Assembly (NCBI GenBank): GCA_037481655.1
Contig: JBBFLF010000003.1
Span: 1-64,000 of the forward strand
Direction of reading: 5' to 3'
From: Desulfobaccales bacterium
GTDB taxonomy: Bacteria; Desulfobacterota; Desulfobaccia; Desulfobaccales; 0-14-0-80-60-11
DNA length: 64,000 bases
The translations under genes and the position numbers were made by a program. Of this stretch, positions 12,674 through 38,378 are shown in pieces. The stretch's first letter is position 1. Each line of letters begins with the position of its first letter. The notes below the pieces were generated by a model that saw only the letters and a program-made list of their open reading frames with translations, was not told the origin of the DNA and did no database searches.

Positions 12674-12863
12674 AGTCCAAAGTCCAAGGTCCAAAGTCGG
12701 GGGTCAAGGTTCAGGGTTCCGGGTACAAAGTTCAAGGTTCAAGGTTGAGTCCAAAGTCCAAAGCCCAAGGTCCAAAGTCGGGGCTTTGGGAATTTAAAGT
12801 TCAAGGTTCAAAGTTCCGGGTTTTGGGGCGAAGGTTTCAGGTTCCAAGTTCAAAGTCAAGTCC
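12674..12863. repeat. Heptamer array, TCCAAAG orientation (left arm, copy 1)
   Basis: Starts five bases after the icd stop codon. Units such as TCCAAAG, TCCAAGG, GTTCAAG and TTCAAAG repeat with mostly transition changes. It is the left arm of an inverted pair with 13051-13243. The intervening 12864-13050 is AT-rich and contains no gene that I can support. Confidence 0.85.
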
Positions 12864-13050
12864 AGAACCTGAGGCCCAAATTCTGAAAGAAAGTGGGAGG
12901 TTGAAAATCTGTAGTTAAGGATAAAAGCGGTAAAACCGAATTATTCCCTGCGGGGAGGATTAATAGTTTGAAGTTTAAGCTTTATAAAGGTCTATTGCTA
13001 AAAGTTTTAGGCAAAGGGACCAAACCGATTATTCAACCCCCCGCCTAATA

Positions 13051-13243
13051 ACTTTGAACCTTGAACCTGGAACTTTGAACTATCAAGTATGGACTTTGGA
13101 CTCAACCCCCGACTTTGGTCTTGGGACTCTTAACTTTGAACCTTGAACCTGGAACTTTGAACCCCTGGCCTGGAACTTTGAACTTTGAACCTTGAACCTG
13201 GAACTTTGAACTTTGGACCTTGGGCTTTGGACTTTGGACTCTT
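13051..13243. repeat. Heptamer array, CTTTGGA orientation (right arm, copy 1)
   Basis: Units CTTTGAA, CCTTGAA, CTTTGGA repeat up to the stop codon of the minus-strand amidotransferase gene. Reverse-complementary in type to 12674-12863, so the 570-base intergenic region is one long imperfect inverted repeat. Confidence 0.85.
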
Positions 13244-15895: not shown

Positions 15896-15910
15896 GTTAT
15901 TCACCGATGG

Positions 15911-16095
15911 AGTCCAAAGTCCAAGGCCCAAAGTCCAAAGTCAGAAAGAATTAGTCCAAAGTCCAAAGTCAAAAAGATTAGTCCAAAGTCAAAAGTCCAA
16001 AGCCCAAGGTCCAAGGTCAAATGAATTAGTCCAAGGTCCAAGGTCCAAAGTCCAAGGTCAAATGAATTAGTCCAAAGTCCAAAGGCAAAAGTCAG
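15911..16095. repeat. Heptamer array, TCCAAAG orientation (left arm, copy 2, flanking the four-helix-bundle gene)
   Basis: Blocks of three to five TCCAAAG/TCCAAGG/CCCAAAG heptamers are separated by AT-rich spacers such as TCAAATGAATTAG and TCAAAAAGATTAG, giving a higher-order period of roughly 40-55 bases. Begins about 15 bases upstream of the amidotransferase start codon. Confidence 0.88.
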
Positions 16096-16154
16096 ATAGA
16101 TTCGTCTAAAAGTGCAGGGGTTGTTAAAAAATTTAAGATATAGAAAAAATTAAT

Positions 16155-16544
16155 CTATTTGTATTTGCTGCCTTTGTGCGTTGACTCTTTGATATATCTC
16201 ATGAAACCGGCTATCAGGCGCGACGTTTCATCCGCCAAATCCAGAAGATGATGAAACTGATTCTGGTCAATCAGACCTGCATCCACAGCCGCATAAATCT
16301 GGGCTTTCAGTTCTCCCACCGAGCCTTTGGCGATGGAGAGGAATTGCCGGAATTCCTTGTCACCCTCCCGTTCAAAGCCCTCAGCAATATTGGCCATGAT
16401 GGAAATGGCCGAGCGCCTCAGTTGGTCTCTCAACACAAAATCCATCGCCAGAGTGCCCTGACTTGTTATTTGATAAATATTTTTGGTCAACTCCCGGGCC
16501 TTTCTCCAGGCCTCAATCTCCTCAAATCTTTCAATTTTCCCCAT
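16155..16544 (-). CDS. Four-helix-bundle protein (23S rRNA intervening-sequence / S23 family, Avd-like fold)
   Basis: 129 residues with the hallmarks of the bacterial IVP/S23 family: FEEIEAWRKARELTKNIYQ (helix 1), FVLRDQLRRSAISIMANIAEGFER (helix 2), FRQFLSIAKGSVGELKAQIYAAVDAGLI (helix 3) and the final helix LADETSRLIAGFMRYIK. Family members occur inside 23S rRNA intervening sequences, as free-standing genes, and as Avd, the accessory protein of diversity-generating retroelements; biochemical role unclear, with a basic surface suited to nucleic acid binding. No reverse transcriptase or rRNA is near. It is the only gene found between a pair of inverted heptamer arrays, and base composition is lower in GC than its neighbours, both suggesting transfer. 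AAGGAC precedes the ATG. Confidence 0.88.
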   Translation of the reverse strand: MGKIERFEEIEAWRKARELTKNIYQITSQGTLAMDFVLRDQLRRSAISIMANIAEGFEREGDKEFRQFLSIAKGSVGELKAQIYAAVDAGLIDQNQFHHLLDLADETSRLIAGFMRYIKESTHKGSKYK

Positions 16545-16585
16545 TGTCCTTCGCCTAAAACTATTCCAACTTCGGTCTTAAAAAA

Positions 16586-16696
16586 CTTTGGACTTTGGAC
16601 TTTGGACTTTGGACTCGAAAAACGACTTTGGACTTTGGGCCTTGGACTTTGGACTCGAAAAATGACTTTGGACCTTGGACTTTGGACTTTGGACTC
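16586..16696. repeat. Heptamer array, CTTTGGA orientation (right arm, copy 2)
   Basis: Three blocks of GGACTTT heptamers (variants GGGCTTT, GGGCCTT, GGACCTT) separated by CGAAAAACGA and CGAAAAATGA. It ends at the stop codon of the minus-strand FMN-barrel gene. Opposite in orientation to 15911-16095. Confidence 0.88.
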
Positions 16697-18247
16697 TCAC
16701 ACCCCCCGCCGGATATCATCCTCCACCGGCAGGTTGTAGTAGTCCAGGTGGACCAGGGTGTCGGTGCGGCCCACCAGCTCCCGGATACTGCGCATGCCGA
16801 AGCGGCGCAGGATCTCTTTCAGCTGCCAGGTCCAGGCATGGTAGAGGTTGCACACCCGGCGGGTGCCCCACTCCACCGTCATCATGGCCACCAGCTCCGG
16901 GTCGGTGGTGGCAATGCCCCGGACACAGCCCCGCCCGGACTCGCATTGATAGCAGCGGATGCACTCCAGGGCCACCATCTCGGCGGTGCCCACCTGGCAG
17001 CCGTCGGCCCCCAGGGCGATGGCCTTGGCCACATCAAAGGCGGTGCGGATGCCCCCCGAGGCGATGAGGGTCACCTGGTCCCGGATGCCCTCCTGCACCA
17101 GGAACTGGTGCACCTTGGGGATGGCCAGCTCGATGGGCATGGCGATGTTCTTCTTGGCGATGTCCGGCGCCGCGCCGGTGCCGCCGTAGCTGCCGTCCAG
17201 CTGCACCACGTGGGCCCCGGCGTAGTAGCTCCCCACCGCCACCATGTCCACGTCCGTGGGGGTGGAGACCTTCACCGACACCAGGGCCCGGGGGTTGACC
17301 TCCTTGATCCAGTCGATGTGTTTTTTGTGGTCCTCCACGGAGTAGACGCTGTGGAAGGGGAAAGGGCTGAAAAGGGCGCTTCCGGGCACGCTCTCCCGCA
17401 TGCGGGCCACCGCCGGGGTGACCTTGTCGCCCAAGAGGTGCCCGCCCAGCCCCGGTTTGGCGCCCTGGGCATACTTGAACTCCACCATGCGCACCCGCTG
17501 GATGGTGTCCTCCCGGACGCCGAAAAGCCCGGTGGCCACCTGGGTGACCACGTGATCGTCATACGGGTAGAGCTCCTCCGGGTAGCCCCCTTCGCCGGTG
17601 GAGAGGAGGGTGTTGAAGCGGGTGGCGGCCCGCACCCGGGAGAGGATGGTGTTGATGCTCACCGAGCCGAAGGACATGCCGGCGGAATACCAGGGCACCG
17701 ATAGTACCACCTGGGGCCGGCCGTCATGGCGCCGGTTCAGGGGGAGCTCCAGAGAGATATCTTCATGCCGGAGTTTGAGGTCCTTGGGCTGGGGCGGGAA
17801 GAAGAAGCGCAGCTTGTCAAAGCCGCCCCCCGAGTTGCCGGTGCGGTATTCCAGATCGGCATAGGGGAGGGTGCCGAATTCCGCCATCCACCAGGTGCTA
17901 AGGAGCAGGTCCGCGGTCCAGCGGTAGTCCCCCAAGGTGTTATAGACCGGGTGCAGCCGGATGCTTAAGGCCTGGGTGGGGCAGCGCCTAACGCAGTAGA
18001 AGTCGTTTTTCTCGCAGGCCGGCCCCAGACACAGGTAACTTAAGGGCTTGCGGATGAACTTGTTCGCCTTGGTGTGCACCCCATAGGGGCAGACCTCCAC
18101 GCAGGTGCCGCATTGGATGCACTTGGCCTCGTTGCGCCACACCCGCCATTTGGACAGGGGGTTCTTGAACCGGCAGGGGGTGCGCACCGGCGTCCAGGGC
18201 CCGGGGCCCCAGGCTTCGTTGTCAATTTTCAAAGCAGTTTCCATCAT
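16697..18247 (-). CDS. Glutamate synthase-like FMN-barrel protein with N-terminal ferredoxin domain
   Basis: 516 residues. An N-terminal bacterial-ferredoxin domain has Cys43-x2-Cys46-x2-Cys49-x3-Cys53 and a second group Cys73, Cys78, Cys85, Cys89, for two Fe-S clusters. The rest is the FMN-binding (beta/alpha)8 barrel of glutamate synthase: SVSINTILSRVRAA, GAKPGLGGHLLGDKV, LVSVKVSTPTDVD, QLDGSYGGTGAAP, LIASGGIRTAFDVAKAIALGAD, and the 3Fe-4S type loop CIRCYQCESGRGC. This layout is typical of archaeal and anaerobic bacterial GltB-like proteins that take electrons from ferredoxin. Together with the amidotransferase/GXGXG protein it could make a complete split glutamate synthase. Confidence 0.88.
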   Translation of the reverse strand: MMETALKIDNEAWGPGPWTPVRTPCRFKNPLSKWRVWRNEAKCIQCGTCVEVCPYGVHTKANKFIRKPLSYLCLGPACEKNDFYCVRRCPTQALSIRLHPVYNTLGDYRWTADLLLSTWWMAEFGTLPYADLEYRTGNSGGGFDKLRFFFPPQPKDLKLRHEDISLELPLNRRHDGRPQVVLSVPWYSAGMSFGSVSINTILSRVRAATRFNTLLSTGEGGYPEELYPYDDHVVTQVATGLFGVREDTIQRVRMVEFKYAQGAKPGLGGHLLGDKVTPAVARMRESVPGSALFSPFPFHSVYSVEDHKKHIDWIKEVNPRALVSVKVSTPTDVDMVAVGSYYAGAHVVQLDGSYGGTGAAPDIAKKNIAMPIELAIPKVHQFLVQEGIRDQVTLIASGGIRTAFDVAKAIALGADGCQVGTAEMVALECIRCYQCESGRGCVRGIATTDPELVAMMTVEWGTRRVCNLYHAWTWQLKEILRRFGMRSIRELVGRTDTLVHLDYYNLPVEDDIRRGV

Positions 18248-18253
18248 GTTTTA

Positions 18254-18508
18254 ATCCAAAGCAAAAAATTAGTCCAAAGTCCAAAGCCCAAAGTCCAAGG
18301 TCCAAAGTCAAAAATTAGTCCAAGGTCCAAGGCCCAAAGTCCAAAGTCGGAAAAGAGTCCAAAGCCCAAAGTCCAAGGTCCAAAGTCAAAAATTAGTCCA
18401 AGGTCCAGAGTCCAAAGTCAGAAAAGAGTCCTAATTTTATGGTCCAAGGTCCAAAGTTGGAAATGAGTCCAAAGTCCAAAATCGAAAGTCCAAGGTCAAA
18501 TCAAGTTT
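18254..18508. repeat. Heptamer array, TCCAAAG orientation (left arm, copy 3)
   Basis: Starts a few bases upstream of the FMN-barrel gene start codon. Blocks of TCCAAAG/CCCAAAG/TCCAAGG are separated by TCAAAAATTAG and TCGGAAAAGAG spacers, the same architecture as 15911-16095. The following 18509-18646 is AT-rich, with a TTCAAAAG-like degenerate tail and no supportable gene. Confidence 0.87.
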
Positions 18509-18646
18509 TAGTGTCTAAATAAAAATTCAAAAGTTAAAGATTCAAAGATTTAAAGTTCAAAAGTCAAAAATTCAAGTCGAAAATACTTTTTTAATACAAT
18601 CCATTGAAGTCAAAGCCATAGAAATATGGTTTATTTTTGCCACAAG

Positions 18647-18743
18647 CCTTGGACTTTGGACTTTGGGCCTTGGACTTTTGACTTTTGTATTGACTTTGGG
18701 CCTTGGACTTTGGACTTTTTTATTGGACTTTGGACTTTGGACT
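18647..18743. repeat. Heptamer array, CTTTGGA orientation (right arm, copy 3)
   Basis: Units GGACTTT, GGGCCTT, GGACTTTTG repeat until five bases before the stop codon of the minus-strand Fe-S protein gene. Opposite in orientation to 18254-18508. Confidence 0.87.
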
Positions 18744-18747
18744 ATCT

Positions 18748-20163
18748 TCATTCCCCTTCCCGCCTGAGGCCCTCCGGGGTGGGGCGGGAGAACAGGGGCG
18801 CAAAGATCTCCCGCTCCAGCTCCTCCACAAACATGGCCCGGCCCACCTCGCCCCGCAGGCGGCGCACCTCCCTAAGCCCCATGGCGCCCAAGACCTCCAG
18901 GAGCTGATTGTTCCAGGCCCCCAGGAGGTTCACCTGGCGCTGGGCCCCGCGGTTCGGGTCCAGGTTGTCGATGGCCACCGGACACTCACCGCCCCGTTGA
19001 CAGGCCCGGCACAACCGGCACTCCAGGGCCAGAAGCAGCGGCAGGTCCACGACCACCCCGTCAGCGCCGCAGATGATGGCCTTGGCCACATGCTCCGCCA
19101 AGGCGATGCCCCCGGAGGCCAGAAGCGTCACGGTGTCCCGGAGGTTGTCCTCCACCAGTTGCAGGTGCGCCGCCCGGATGAGGTCTTTGAGGTGCTGCTC
19201 CTGAGCCCCCAAAAAGCCCCGGGCATGGTGGTCACAGAAGAGGTGGACGACCTCGGCCCCGGCCTGGGCCAGCTCCGACACCCGCGAGGCAGCCCGATCG
19301 TCCGCCGGCACCTTGATCATGATGACCAGACCTGGATGACGGCGTTTCAGGGCCTCCATCTGGGTCAGCACGCCCTCATGGTCGGTGAGCTCCACCAGCC
19401 GGACTTGGGCAAGGAGCGGGTCTTCGGGATCAGCGAGGCCGGTGGGGAAGCTGAGGCACAGGTGCTCCGCCTCCGTGGCCAGGTCCGGGGTGACGTTTTC
19501 CCGGGCGAAGACCGCCAGGGTCTTGAGGCTCTTGGCCGCGCCTGCCAAGGCCCGGCGCACCAGCTCCGGCCCGGCGCTGAAGGGCGGCTCGGCCAAGAGC
19601 ACCGGCAGGGGAATCTCCACCTGGGGCGGCGGCTCGAAGGTGAGCCGGCCCTCGGCGTCAAAGACCAGAAAGAGCGGCTTGCGGCCCAGATCGATGGCGG
19701 TGCTGATGTACTCCCGGCCGTGGATGCCGTCCCGGGTGGGCCGAACGATCTCGCTCATGTCGGTCCAGATGCTGTCAAAGCCGGGGCCGGCAAAGGGCCC
19801 GCCGTAGCCCGCGCCGGAGACCGGAATCTTGCCGGTCTCCGCCTGAAACCAGGTGGACTGGATGACCGCCGGGGTCCAGTAATCATCCCCCAGGCGGCGG
19901 TATTGGGGGTTGGCGGCCTTCACCACCAGCTCCCGGGGGCAGCCCTGGACGCAGCGCAGGCAGTTCTTGCAGTAGGTGTCGATGGTGTCGGAGAGGCTGC
20001 GATCATCGAAGTCCCGCTGCCGGAAGGCATTATACGGGCAGGTCTCCTTGACGCAGCGGGTGCATCTCAAACACCCCTCCCCCCAATCCAGGACGGTGGT
20101 CTTGCCCACCGACGGAAAGCGGGAAGGCGTAGGCCTGACATGAATGTGATACTTTTCCGGCAT
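18748..20163 (-). CDS. Fe-S protein with degenerate glutamate synthase-like barrel
   Basis: 471 residues. Two N-terminal 4Fe-4S motifs (Cys31, 34, 37, 42 and Cys65, 68, 71, 75; context CLRCTRCVKETCPYNAF) are followed by a barrel related to the glutamate synthase FMN domain but more divergent: LLASGGIALAEHVAKAIICGADGVVVD and the Cys loop CRLCRACQRGGECP are kept, while the middle region (LLAEPPFSAGPELVRRALAGA) has drifted. It is best read as a paralogue or partner subunit of the 516-residue FMN-barrel protein, possibly an electron-transfer or scaffold subunit. Lies between metV upstream and the FMN-barrel gene downstream on the same strand. Confidence 0.75.
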   Translation of the reverse strand: MPEKYHIHVRPTPSRFPSVGKTTVLDWGEGCLRCTRCVKETCPYNAFRQRDFDDRSLSDTIDTYCKNCLRCVQGCPRELVVKAANPQYRRLGDDYWTPAVIQSTWFQAETGKIPVSGAGYGGPFAGPGFDSIWTDMSEIVRPTRDGIHGREYISTAIDLGRKPLFLVFDAEGRLTFEPPPQVEIPLPVLLAEPPFSAGPELVRRALAGAAKSLKTLAVFARENVTPDLATEAEHLCLSFPTGLADPEDPLLAQVRLVELTDHEGVLTQMEALKRRHPGLVIMIKVPADDRAASRVSELAQAGAEVVHLFCDHHARGFLGAQEQHLKDLIRAAHLQLVEDNLRDTVTLLASGGIALAEHVAKAIICGADGVVVDLPLLLALECRLCRACQRGGECPVAIDNLDPNRGAQRQVNLLGAWNNQLLEVLGAMGLREVRRLRGEVGRAMFVEELEREIFAPLFSRPTPEGLRREGE

Positions 20164-34384: not shown

Positions 34385-35310
34385 GAAGAATTCAAGATTT
34401 TACACATAGAACTCTGAGGCCGATAATCTAGCCAAGCTCGCCATTACCATGGGACCTCATGGTCAAACTCATCAATTTGCTCTGAGTCAATACAAACGCT
34501 AGGTGGAAAGCATAAAATGAAGTACAGTATCTCCACAATGGTTTTTGTGTGTCTGTTGAGTGTAAGTGTTCATGCTGGAGAGCTCCACACAATTCCTGGC
34601 ACGTCGCTGACTTACTACATCGTCAATGACGGTCAGCTCCCTAAGACAGCATTCATTCTCTTCCCCGGGGGTGACGGTGCCGATCACGTGAGGATTGAAG
34701 ACGGGAAAGTCAGGTTAAGCAAAAACTTTCTTGTTCGTACTGCTAATACATACGCTTCAGCTGGTTTCACTACAGTAATCGTGAGTTCCACTACCGGAAT
34801 GTCAGACGACTACAGGCAGTCCAGCGAGCAGGCAACGCACGTACAGTCTATTATTAACCACTTGGCTAAACTTGGAGTTGATAAATTTTTCCTGGTGGGT
34901 ACGAGCCGTGGGACGATGTCAGTAGCCTCTCTCGTCAACAAGCTCACCGACAGCAGGATAAAAGGCATTATTATGACAGCTACGGTTAATAAAGTTAATC
35001 TAAGAGCATGTAGAGTCCCCGTACTGTTTATCCACCACGTAGATGATGGTTGTAAGGCAAGTCCATTCCAAGACGCCAAGAGACTTAGTAAAAGTCATAA
35101 TGCATCTTTCGTTGAAGTGAGTGGTGGACTGCCGCCAGAGACTGATCATTGTAAAGCCTTGAGCCCTCATGGATTCTACGGAGTCGAGACTGTGGCCACT
35201 AATGCCATGATCTCATGGGCGAGGAAGCTGTAATCTCGCGTGGAAAAGGCTTTATAACAACGGCCCGTTGGAGTCCTTAAAGCCTTCTTAAGTGGACGAG
35301 AAAGTCGGGT
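34385..35310. other. Segment of lower GC content (possible horizontal insert 1)
   Basis: Base composition falls visibly from about 34385 to 35300 compared with the GC-rich genes on both sides, and codon third positions use A and T freely. It contains a single gene, the secreted alpha/beta hydrolase. No transposase, integrase, tRNA or direct repeats were found at the ends; a palindromic repeat lies at the right end. Confidence 0.6.
34517..35233 (+). CDS. Secreted alpha/beta hydrolase-like protein
   Basis: 238 residues with a signal peptide (MKYSISTMVFVCLLSVSVHAGE, cleavage near 20-21). The alpha/beta hydrolase fold is suggested by FILFPGGDGAD (oxyanion region), the nucleophile elbow GTSRGTMS (Ser in GxSxG), VPVLFIHHVDDGC (Asp region), and a late His (TDHCKALSPHGF). 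Two or three Cys pairs may form disulfides. Substrate unknown; likely a periplasmic esterase or depsipeptide-type hydrolase. It sits in a segment of lower GC than its neighbours, with freer third-position A/T use, so horizontal acquisition is likely. Confidence 0.72.
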   Translation: MKYSISTMVFVCLLSVSVHAGELHTIPGTSLTYYIVNDGQLPKTAFILFPGGDGADHVRIEDGKVRLSKNFLVRTANTYASAGFTTVIVSSTTGMSDDYRQSSEQATHVQSIINHLAKLGVDKFFLVGTSRGTMSVASLVNKLTDSRIKGIIMTATVNKVNLRACRVPVLFIHHVDDGCKASPFQDAKRLSKSHNASFVEVSGGLPPETDHCKALSPHGFYGVETVATNAMISWARKL

Positions 35311-35384: not shown

Positions 35385-36350
35385 ATGGCTGACAGTCCGG
35401 CGGATTCCCTGAGATTGACGGTGTCAGAGGGGGAGGCCGGGCTGCGCCTGGATCAGTTTCTGGCACGGCGGACGGCTTACTCCCGTTCCCGGCTGTCCCG
35501 CTGGCTGAAGGCAGGCCAGGTGAGGGTGAACGGGGTGCTCAAGGAGGCCAGTTATCGGGTGCGGGCGGGGGAGGAGGTGGCCCTCACGGTGCCGCCCCCG
35601 GAGCCCACGGAGCTGGCGCCCGAGTCCCGGCCCCTGGACATTCTCTATGAGGATGACCACCTCCTGGTGGTGAACAAGCCCCCGGGGCTGGTGGTGCATC
35701 CCGGGGCGGGGCACCGGGGGGGGACGCTGCTCAATGCGCTTGTGGCCCACTGCCCGGAGCTGGCCCGGGTGGGTGAGGTCAGTCGCCCGGGGCTGGTGCA
35801 CCGTCTGGACAAGGACACCAGCGGCCTCCTGGTGGTGGCCAAGAGTGCCGCCGCCCATGCCGACCTGGTGCGGCAGTTTCAGGCCCGGACGGTGGAGAAG
35901 ACCTATCTCGCCCTGGTGTGGGGCCGTCTCAGGGAGGCGGAAGGGGAGATCATCGGCGAGATCGGCCGTCACCCCAGCCAGCGCCAGAAGATGAGCGCCC
36001 GGCCCCGGCGGGGCAAGCCGGCGGTGACCACCTGGCGGGTGCTGAAGGAATTGCCGGGGCCCCTGACCCTGGTGGAGCTCTCCCCCAAGACCGGGCGCAC
36101 CCACCAGCTCCGGGTGCACCTGGCGGCCCTGGGACATCCGGTGGTGGGGGACGGCACGTACGGGGGCGGCGCCACGCGGTTTCAGGGGCTGCCTCGGCTG
36201 GCGGGGGTGAGAAAGCTGGTGACCCGCCAGTTGCTGCACGCCTGGCGCCTTGCCTTCACCCACCCCGCCACCGGGGCGCGACTTCACTTTGAGGCCCCCC
36301 CGCCGGAGGATATTAAATTAATATTGGACATTTTAAAGGAGGAGGGTTGA
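35385..36350 (+). CDS. RluA/RluD-family pseudouridine synthase
   Basis: 321 residues: an N-terminal S4 RNA-binding domain (AGLRLDQFLARRTAYSRSRLSRWLKAGQVRVNGVL, about 15-75) and the catalytic domain with GLVHRLDKDTSGLLVV, whose Asp is the nucleophile, plus KTGRTHQLRVHLAALGHPVVGD. Modifies uridines in 23S rRNA (RluD sites 1911/1915/1917 are the best-known targets). Most of the gene is GC-rich, but the last 13 codons (DIKLILDILKEEG) are AT-rich and run straight into the AT-rich HNH gene, which suggests that the insert boundary is inside the 3' end of this gene. Confidence 0.92.
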   Translation: MADSPADSLRLTVSEGEAGLRLDQFLARRTAYSRSRLSRWLKAGQVRVNGVLKEASYRVRAGEEVALTVPPPEPTELAPESRPLDILYEDDHLLVVNKPPGLVVHPGAGHRGGTLLNALVAHCPELARVGEVSRPGLVHRLDKDTSGLLVVAKSAAAHADLVRQFQARTVEKTYLALVWGRLREAEGEIIGEIGRHPSQRQKMSARPRRGKPAVTTWRVLKELPGPLTLVELSPKTGRTHQLRVHLAALGHPVVGDGTYGGGATRFQGLPRLAGVRKLVTRQLLHAWRLAFTHPATGARLHFEAPPPEDIKLILDILKEEG

Positions 36351-37757
36351 TGATAAATGGAATGCTGGCATGATCAATTTAATCCTGAGAAATTTCTATC
36401 TAAAATCAATATTGACAAATTAATAGAGAGGAATGAGGCATATAATGAAAACAAGGTTGATAAATTAGCAAAGCCTTGTATTTTTTGCCAAGGATTAAAA
36501 AGTCCTGGATTGCTACTTAATGATAAATCATATCTTTGTAAAATATGTTTTGAAGAAATATCTAAAATAAAATACCCTGAATATTATGAAAATTTACGTA
36601 GGGAATACATTTTAAAATTAGAGGCAAGACGACAAGCTCGTGATGCATTCTTGAATAGTTGCCCCTTTAAAAAATTATTAAATTTAAATAAAATAGCTAT
36701 ATTTGTTTTATTAATTACTTCATTATTTAAACCAACTTCTTTATTATTAATAATAGGTCTTTTTCTCATAAATTATATATTAAAAGCAAGGCAAGAGAAA
36801 AGAATTTCGCAATGGGATTCTTTATATCCAGCACCACCCGAACCAAAAATGCGTCACTTTCATGATCCGTTAGCGAAATTATCTTCCCGTGATTTTCTGA
36901 TTTTAAAAATTTTCAATAATTGGCCAGGCTATCCACCTTTTTGGCAATATTTACGACAAATTGTTATGGAGAGGGACGGTAACAGATGTCAAGTTTCTGG
37001 TTGTCCTTCGAGAGTAGAATTACATATTCATCATAAAATTCCTGTTTCAAAGGGAGGCCAACATATTCCAGAAAATTTAATAACTTTGTGTTGTTTTCAC
37101 CATGCATTAGAACCAGATGAAGGACATGAAAGGATTTGGGCAGAAGTAAAAACAAAATATTTCACAATAGTAAGGGCCCATATAAGAAAAAATCCATATA
37201 ATTATGGATTTCATAATGTGCGCGCACATGTAAGAAGATTAGAATTATCAAATCAATCTGATATATCTAAAATTATAAATTTTTATGGTCTTATCTGTCC
37301 AAATTGTAATAATTTAAATTTCAATATTGATGTTATTAAACAAAAACAAAAAATTATAATAACTTGTATTAATTGCTTTTCTAAATGGATCGGGCCAAGA
37401 AAACTAGCAGAAGAGAATGGACCTCGTTTGGCAGAGGTTTTAACTGTTACTAAAAATAGGGGAAATTGGAATCCACGGTGGGAAATGCTAGAGGAGCGGA
37501 CTGAATCGACATTTAACTTAATGAAAACATTAGAACATAAAAATAGTAAAAAAAGAAAAACGATTTTATCTAAAAAAGCATCAGCCCCAAAATGCCCTAA
37601 GTGTGGAGCTACTATGCGTCTTGTTCGGCCAAAACCAGGGCAAAAATGGAAGGCTTTTTGGGGCTGTAGTATGTATAATAAAACGGGGTGTAATGAAACT
37701 ATAAATATTAGTTAATTTTATATAACATCATGCTAAAATTATATAAAAATATAAATT
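36311..37757. other. Strongly AT-rich insert carrying the HNH fusion gene (possible horizontal insert 2)
   Basis: Composition switches abruptly from GC-rich to strongly AT-rich at about 36311 (inside the RluD-type 3' end) and back again at the coaE start (37758). Nothing else in the window is this AT-rich. The insert contains one gene and very little flanking sequence, so it is placed as a single-gene cassette between two core genes. Confidence 0.75.
36357..37715 (+). CDS. Membrane-associated HNH nuclease with zinc ribbons and topoisomerase-type zinc finger
   Basis: 452 residues, not a recognised family as a whole. Visible parts: zinc ribbon Cys41/44/61/64 (CIFCQGLK...CKIC); hydrophobic pair at about 112-123 and 127-143; an HNH nuclease core at about 204-250 (MERDGNRCQVSGCPSRVELHIHHKIPVSKGGQHIPENLITLCCFHHA, with Cys211/216, His225/226, Asn240, His248/249); a second zinc ribbon Cys314/317/337/340; and a C-terminal topoisomerase IA-type zinc finger (CPKCGATMRLVRPKPG...WGCSMY...C, Cys413/416/437/445). 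It could be an anti-phage or mobile-element nuclease. Strongly AT-rich, unlike its neighbours. The ATG follows AAAGGAGG located in the 3' end of the preceding gene. Confidence 0.8.
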   Translation: MECWHDQFNPEKFLSKINIDKLIERNEAYNENKVDKLAKPCIFCQGLKSPGLLLNDKSYLCKICFEEISKIKYPEYYENLRREYILKLEARRQARDAFLNSCPFKKLLNLNKIAIFVLLITSLFKPTSLLLIIGLFLINYILKARQEKRISQWDSLYPAPPEPKMRHFHDPLAKLSSRDFLILKIFNNWPGYPPFWQYLRQIVMERDGNRCQVSGCPSRVELHIHHKIPVSKGGQHIPENLITLCCFHHALEPDEGHERIWAEVKTKYFTIVRAHIRKNPYNYGFHNVRAHVRRLELSNQSDISKIINFYGLICPNCNNLNFNIDVIKQKQKIIITCINCFSKWIGPRKLAEENGPRLAEVLTVTKNRGNWNPRWEMLEERTESTFNLMKTLEHKNSKKRKTILSKKASAPKCPKCGATMRLVRPKPGQKWKAFWGCSMYNKTGCNETINIS

Positions 37758-38378
37758 ATGTTGAAAATCGCCCTCACCGGCGGGGCCGGGACCGGCAAGA
37801 GCACCGTGGCCCGCATGTTTGCGGACCTGGGCGCGGTGGTGCTCAGCGCCGATGAGATCGCCCGGGAGGTGGTCCGGCCCCACACCCCCGCCTGGGAGGC
37901 CCTGCGCCGGGAATTCGGCCCCGAGTTTTTCCATGAGGACGGCAGCCTCAACCGGGTGAAGCTGGGGCGCCTGGTCTTTGCCGAGCCCGAGGCCCTGGGG
38001 CGCCTCAACGCCATCGTCCACCCGGCCATCATCCGGGAACTGAAGCGGCGGTTGGCGGAGCTGGCCGCCCGGGGCACGCCCCTGGTGATCGTGGAGGTGC
38101 CCCTCCTCTTTGAGACCGGCCGGGAGGGGGAGTACGACGCGGTGATTGTGGTGGATGCGCCCCTCTCGGAGCAGCGGGCTCGGCTCAAGGCCCGGGATGA
38201 CCGGGGGGAGGAGGAGATCAGCGGGCTGTTGGCCGCCCAAATGCCCCTGGCGGAAAAACGCCGCCGGGCGGACTATGTGGTGGACAATTCCGGTACTTTG
38301 GAGGAGACGCGGCGGCAGGTGGAAAAACTGTGGCAGCGGCTCCAAAATCGTCTTGACAAGGCGCGGGAAACAGGATAG
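37758..38378 (+). CDS. coaE: Dephospho-CoA kinase
   Basis: Last step of coenzyme A synthesis, phosphorylating the 3'-hydroxyl of dephospho-CoA. The 206 residues begin MLKIALTGGAGTGKSTVARMFADLGA with the Walker A motif, followed by DADEIA-type substrate site (LSADEIAREVVRPH) and LVIVEVPLLFETGREGEYDAVIVV. Length matches the family. It precedes rho at about 290 bases, an arrangement seen in several deltaproteobacteria. The coaBC gene elsewhere in the window supplies earlier CoA steps. Confidence 0.95.
   Translation: MLKIALTGGAGTGKSTVARMFADLGAVVLSADEIAREVVRPHTPAWEALRREFGPEFFHEDGSLNRVKLGRLVFAEPEALGRLNAIVHPAIIRELKRRLAELAARGTPLVIVEVPLLFETGREGEYDAVIVVDAPLSEQRARLKARDDRGEEEISGLLAAQMPLAEKRRRADYVVDNSGTLEETRRQVEKLWQRLQNRLDKARETG

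What the first reader, a model, noticed from the sequence alone, without database searches (positions are those of the whole stretch)
36311..37757. Single-gene AT-rich cassette encoding a zinc ribbon - membrane - HNH nuclease - topoisomerase zinc finger protein
Seen: a sharp composition change at both ends, between two GC-rich core genes, and a 452-residue protein with four Cys-based metal sites, a hydrophobic pair and an HNH core. Known: HNH nucleases are common in restriction and anti-phage systems, and type IA topoisomerase zinc fingers bind single-stranded DNA. A membrane-anchored nuclease with both parts is not an architecture that I recognise. Inference: a stand-alone defence or mobile nuclease acting on DNA entering at the membrane.
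Basis: partly seen in the sequence, partly recalled or inferred. Interest (0 to 1): 0.72.

Follow-up and report, generated by a model that had tools for sequence, protein, structure and literature searches.

The report
Uncharacterised membrane-anchored HNH nuclease family
A single AT-rich gene, inserted between two housekeeping genes of a bacterium, encodes a conserved but uncharacterised protein that looks like a DNA-cutting enzyme anchored in the cell membrane with several zinc-bound modules; it most plausibly attacks foreign DNA as it enters the cell, but no activity has been shown.

Summary
The 452-aa ORF (36357-37715, GC 31% against 63% around it) fills the gap between an rluD-type pseudouridine synthase gene and coaE. 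Six further full-length homologues (36-63% identical) were found in three lineages. All seven keep one architecture: N-terminal CxxC/CxxC site, hydrophobic hairpin, HNH core with invariant H225, H226, N240, H248 and H249, a second Cys ribbon, and a C-terminal topoisomerase-IA-type ribbon. So this is a real protein family with no entry of its own in Pfam, NCBIfam, PHROGs or PADLOC.

The gene is not a one-off cassette: two family relatives carry it at the same rluD-coaE site, same-genus genomes have the site empty, and other relatives carry toxin-antitoxin pairs, another HNH gene or unknown genes there. And "membrane anchor + nuclease + Top1 ribbon" has a precedent, a plasmid TM-Mrr_cat-Zn_ribbon_Top1 protein, so only the HNH version is new.

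Best guess (0.5): a stand-alone membrane-bound HNH nuclease acting on incoming DNA, functionally like SNIPE but unrelated in domains. Support is indirect: architecture, a cargo slot, and a Shedu gene directly upstream of one homologue. Rivals are a DNA-uptake or conjugation nuclease and a homing endonuclease. New variant of a known kind.

The parts
35385..36350 (+). rluD-type pseudouridine synthase (S4 + PseudoU_synth_2), left flank; its last codons (36312-36350) are AT-rich and differ from sister species
   Evidence: Pfam; comparison with G001/G002
36357..37715 (+). HNH gene, 452 aa
36477..36548 (+). N-terminal CxxC...CxxC site (aa 41-64), invariant in 7 homologues; weak zinc-ribbon/Gin-like profile hits
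36690..36785 (+). hydrophobic hairpin (about aa 112-143), basic residues on both sides, short loop: predicted N-in/C-in membrane anchor
   Evidence: topology is inference
36954..37106 (+). HNH nuclease core (aa 200-250): C211, C216, H225, H226, N240, C245, H248, H249
37290..37382 (+). second Cys ribbon (aa 312-342), C314/C317/C337/C340; C317 lost in the G020 copy
37590..37694 (+). C-terminal topoisomerase-IA-type C4 zinc ribbon (aa 412-446)
   Evidence: DNA topoisomerase 1 as weak best solved match
37758..38378 (+). coaE, dephospho-CoA kinase, right flank

Best explanation
A stand-alone, cytoplasm-facing, membrane-anchored HNH DNA endonuclease that cleaves foreign DNA as it enters the cell. 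Proposed working: the short hydrophobic hairpin holds the protein in the inner membrane with both flanking parts in the cytoplasm; the Top1-type ribbon, and perhaps the middle ribbon, grips single-stranded or unwound DNA; the HNH core cuts it; membrane confinement keeps it off the chromosome. Shown: the conserved domains and catalytic residues, purifying selection, patchy spread, and the cargo-slot location. Inferred: membrane insertion and topology, nuclease activity, DNA binding, and the defence role.
For: HNH residues and three of the four metal sites invariant over 7 homologues down to 36% identity. Hydrophobic hairpin in every member although its sequence is not conserved, as expected of an anchor. 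Top1-type four-Cys ribbon at the C-terminus of every member (52 bits in one). Patchy: 3 of 22 family genomes, 2 of 395 sampled in the phylum, 3 of 132 and 1 of 39 in two other phyla. AT-rich against its surroundings only in the family of the window; composition close to the host's elsewhere, so acquired here. The slot holds ParE-type and HicA/HicB modules and another HNH gene in relatives. The Electryonea homologue follows sduA (Shedu, E 2e-34) and a TIR-type effector gene; a Zixibacteria homologue has a TIR-type gene 2 kb away. Precedent for the mechanism: SNIPE, a membrane-bound GIY-YIG nuclease that cuts phage DNA during injection and is toxic without its TM (PMC13190303).
Against: No activity data. 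PADLOC gives only weak HNH-core matches (DpdF, ZorE). Two of the four homologues outside the window's family have no defence gene nearby. The hydrophobic stretch is only about 31-34 residues, short for two full membrane helices. No domain recognised that would bind phage injection machinery. Structure models are weak (mean pLDDT 54 and 49). Cargo in the slot includes non-defence genes (glycosyltransferase-like, radical-SAM-like).
Confidence: 0.5

Rival explanations
1. A DNA-processing nuclease for natural uptake, conjugation or repair at the membrane: it trims or nicks incoming single strands to help the host or a plasmid, and is not a defence protein.
For: The Top1 ribbon suggests single-strand binding. 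The closest layout found (TM-Mrr_cat-Zn_ribbon_Top1) sits close to topB and a DUF3991/TOPRIM gene on a conjugative plasmid. Weak CoiA_N (competence) profile hits cover the C-terminal ribbon of two members.
Against: No competence, relaxase or transfer gene seen beside the homologues whose neighbours were read. The CoiA_N hits are below cut-off and overlap the Top1 ribbon.
Confidence: 0.17
2. A free-standing homing endonuclease that spreads by cutting the empty rluD-coaE junction.
For: Three genera carry it at the same junction while same-genus genomes have the junction empty. The rluD tail changes with the insert, as in co-conversion. HNH is a common homing fold.
Against: Homologues in other phyla lie at unrelated sites (beside sduA and a typA-like gene, leuS, a TonB-receptor-like gene, a membrane gene cluster). 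Many unrelated genes occupy the same junction. A membrane hairpin and several zinc ribbons are not expected.
Confidence: 0.12
3. A solitary soluble restriction-type nuclease (McrA-like, type IV) in which the hydrophobic pair is a buried core helix pair and not an anchor.
For: McrA is among the weak solved-structure matches of the HNH core (6ghc, E 0.04). The hydrophobic stretch is short.
Against: Hydropathy maxima of 2.2-2.95 over 19 residues in all members, mostly basic flanks and low sequence conservation look like membrane helices.
Confidence: 0.1
4. A suicide nuclease released or activated at infection to cut the host chromosome (abortive infection).
For: HNH effectors of this kind exist in CBASS (Cap5, PMC8568899, listed); TIR-type genes lie near two homologues.
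Against: No sensor or cyclase gene recognised next to it; the gene is solitary at most loci.
Confidence: 0.08

Closest known systems
SNIPE (membrane-bound GIY-YIG + DUF4041 anti-phage nuclease; PMC13190303)
   Same: single gene, predicted membrane anchor, cytoplasmic nuclease
   Different: HNH instead of GIY-YIG, no DUF4041, anchor further into the chain, several zinc ribbons; no defence data
TM-Mrr_cat-Zn_ribbon_Top1 protein (WP_128424867.1, Staphylococcus plasmid pSALNBL75)
   Same: membrane helix, nuclease, then C-terminal Top1 ribbon (58 bits) in one chain
   Different: Mrr_cat nuclease, single N-terminal TM, 201 aa, no N-terminal zinc site
NERD-Zn_ribbon_Top1 protein (WP_021371737.1, Clostridioides plasmid)
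   Same: nuclease-related domain plus C-terminal Top1 ribbon
   Different: NERD fold, no strong TM segment (hydropathy maximum 1.22)
HNH (PF01844) endonucleases, including McrA, IscB and phage HNH proteins
   Same: HNH core and its residues
   Different: homology is largely confined to the HNH core (about 50-100 residues); rest of the architecture absent
Zorya ZorE (HNH) and Dpd DpdF
   Same: weak HNH-core matches (E 0.009 and 0.0006)
   Different: no ZorA/ZorB or dpd genes adjacent; match covers only the HNH motif

Membership tests
HNH nuclease superfamily (PF01844) | profile match above curated cut-off | tested here: met
   30.4 bits against 21.4; all 7 members match
HNH nuclease superfamily (PF01844) | catalytic His/Asn/His and zinc Cys residues conserved | tested here: met
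   H225, H226, N240, H248, H249, C211, C216, C245 invariant in 7
HNH nuclease superfamily (PF01844) | DNA cleavage | not testable with these tools
   needs purified protein
Topoisomerase IA C4 zinc ribbon (PF01396) | profile match above cut-off | tested here: inconclusive
   window copy 19.9 bits, below 32; homologue L070 52.4 bits; four Cys invariant
SNIPE | GIY-YIG nuclease domain | tested here: not met
   HNH instead; no GIY-YIG hit up to E 10
SNIPE | DUF4041 domain | tested here: not met
   no hit up to E 10
SNIPE | membrane anchoring | tested here: inconclusive
   hydrophobic hairpin in all members; localisation not testable
Zorya type II | ZorA/ZorB motor genes beside the HNH gene | tested here: not met
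   neighbours are rluD and coaE
Homing endonuclease | fixed target site with gene-less alleles | tested here: inconclusive
   same site in three family genera and empty in two relatives, but different sites in other phyla
Transposon or phage module | integrase, transposase, phage genes or flanking terminal repeats | tested here: not met
   none at the window locus; no homologue in phage or viral collections

The most novel reading that the evidence does not exclude
A previously undescribed single-gene immune system: a membrane-tethered HNH nuclease with a topoisomerase-type DNA-binding ribbon that intercepts single-stranded or unwinding DNA at the entry site, independent of sequence, modification or partner proteins.
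Probability: 0.3. Interest if true: 0.7.

Novelty: new variant of a known kind. Interest (0 to 1): 0.45.

Why it matters
Membrane localisation as a self/non-self rule for a single-protein nuclease was shown only recently, with SNIPE. A second family with a different nuclease fold and a different DNA-binding part would suggest that the solution arose more than once, and the gene is small enough to test directly. The variable rluD-coaE slot is also a place to look for further small defence candidates in this bacterial family.

Tried and rejected
Prophage or transposon cargo: no integrase, transposase or terminal repeats, and no full-length hit in phages, plasmids or IMG/VR. RNA-guided nuclease: the IscB hit covers only the HNH core, far below its cut-off (37 bits against 175), and there is no RuvC part. 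rluD itself imported: its body is as close to the two sister species (82-84%) as they are to each other (84.5%); only the 3' tail departs. coaE tree used to decide vertical against horizontal descent: backbone unresolved. AlphaFold of the full protein and of the central part: low confidence, so no fold search was made. A central-domain profile found no other architectures in 345 genomes of the phylum.

Full report
OBSERVATION. The window has mean GC 63%. Between an rluD-type pseudouridine synthase gene (35385-36350) and coaE (37758-38378; both by Pfam) lies one ORF of 452 codons, 36357-37715, GC 0.308 and GC3 0.197, about 8.5 standard deviations below equal-sized stretches of the window. Both composition edges are sharp. 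The left edge is inside rluD: the last codons after CCGGAGGAT are AT-rich. The right edge is the coaE start codon.

THE PROTEIN. PF01844 HNH matches aa 216-246 above its cut-off; the C-terminus resembles the topoisomerase IA C4 ribbon (sub-threshold here). NCBIfam, PHROGs and PADLOC give matches confined mainly to the HNH core or to zinc ribbons; no library holds a model of the whole protein.

RELATIVES. Full-length homologues: G003 (63% identical, L003) and G020 (57%, L004) in the window's own family; Candidatus Electryonea clarkiae (50%, L060) and a Zixibacteria MAG (48%, L061); two more in the phylum of the latter, G442 (44%, L069) and G537 (36%, L070). None in 50,697 phage records, in IMG/VR by four pattern scans, or in 72,556 plasmid records beyond the HNH core. 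In the alignment of seven (A3) the N-terminal CxxC/CxxC site, all HNH residues and the C-terminal four cysteines are invariant; the third ribbon has lost one cysteine in G020. A hydrophobic stretch of about 34 residues, poorly conserved in sequence but always present and mostly flanked by basic residues, lies at about aa 108-143; a weak AlphaFold model predicts two helices there with its best local confidence. Differences between copies are lowest at codon position 2 and highest at 3 (pN 0.23, pS 0.68 for window against G003): a gene under purifying selection.

THE SLOT. In the sister family rluD and coaE almost touch (about 6-12 bases between the matched ends in 6 of 6 genomes with both on the locus). 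In two same-genus genomes the gap is 76-78 bases. In other members of the family it holds other genes, often AT-rich: a 331-aa HNH_5 protein (G008), ParE-type toxin pairs (G004, G009; similar pairs read by eye in G012, G018), HicB/HicA (G013), a 175-aa gene (G019), a 186-aa gene (G016), a glycosyltransferase-like 614-aa gene and a radical-SAM-like gene (G012), and more. In G004 and G009 a second copy of the rluD 3' end lies downstream of the toxin pair, which suggests that cargo enters by recombination within the rluD 3' end. In G000 the rluD body is native and only its tail is foreign, which fits. The HNH gene is therefore one cargo of a variable slot. It is composition-matched in AT-rich hosts (gene 0.33-0.38 against flanks 0.36-0.42) and near-matched in G537 (0.53 against 0.58) but remains AT-rich in the GC-rich family of the window, although the three family copies differ about as much as their coaE genes do (57-68% against 60-61% identity). 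Repeated capture at one slot and slow amelioration are both open.

CONTEXT ELSEWHERE. In Electryonea the gene follows a Shedu sduA gene (E 2e-34) and a TIR/2-deoxyribosyltransferase-type gene. In G442 a similar TIR-type gene lies 2 kb downstream. In L061 and L070 the neighbours are nucleotide-sugar and leuS genes, and a membrane gene cluster (names from reading the translations). Defence association is suggestive, not demonstrated; no enrichment test was run.

MECHANISM. The best reading is a cytoplasm-facing membrane-bound HNH nuclease against incoming DNA. The precedent is SNIPE, whose membrane anchor prevents self-cleavage and which cuts phage DNA during injection (PMC13190303); membrane localisation is recognised as a specificity principle for anti-phage nucleases (PMC12904381). 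The present protein shares neither GIY-YIG nor DUF4041, so it is not a SNIPE. A plasmid protein with a TM helix, Mrr_cat and a Top1 ribbon shows that nature joins these three functions with another nuclease; its position near topB on a conjugative plasmid is the main support for the DNA-transfer rival. The homing rival is supported by site identity within the family and weakened by different sites elsewhere.

VERDICT. New variant of a known kind, interest 0.45.

Noticed in passing
34517-35233: A second solitary gene of lower GC (0.47), a weak alpha/beta-hydrolase match, lies between the PIN/TRAM-type gene and rluD; in two same-genus genomes this gap is only about 30-130 bases.
   Followed up: partly
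L042:3712-3837 and L048:2121-2252: Duplicated rluD 3' ends downstream of a ParE-type toxin pair in G004 and G009, a trace of how cargo enters the rluD-coaE slot.
   Followed up: partly
L043:876-1871: G008 carries a different AT-rich single gene in the same slot, a 331-aa protein with an N-terminal HNH_5 domain.
   Followed up: no
L042:3868-4896, L048:2260-2895, L046:2140-2700, L040:1849-2376: Slot cargo genes of 175-342 aa without any Pfam or PADLOC match; possible unknown defence genes.
   Followed up: no
L075:2000-2605: Plasmid protein with TM helix, Mrr_cat and Top1 ribbon close to topoisomerase genes, an architectural parallel.
   Followed up: partly
L077:3016-3690: Haloarchaeal plasmid protein with an HNH domain followed by hydrophobic segments, perhaps another membrane HNH nuclease.
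   Followed up: no
12751-13200, 15901-16650, 18151-18750: Other AT-rich dips in the window (GC 0.33-0.48) that were not examined.
   Followed up: no
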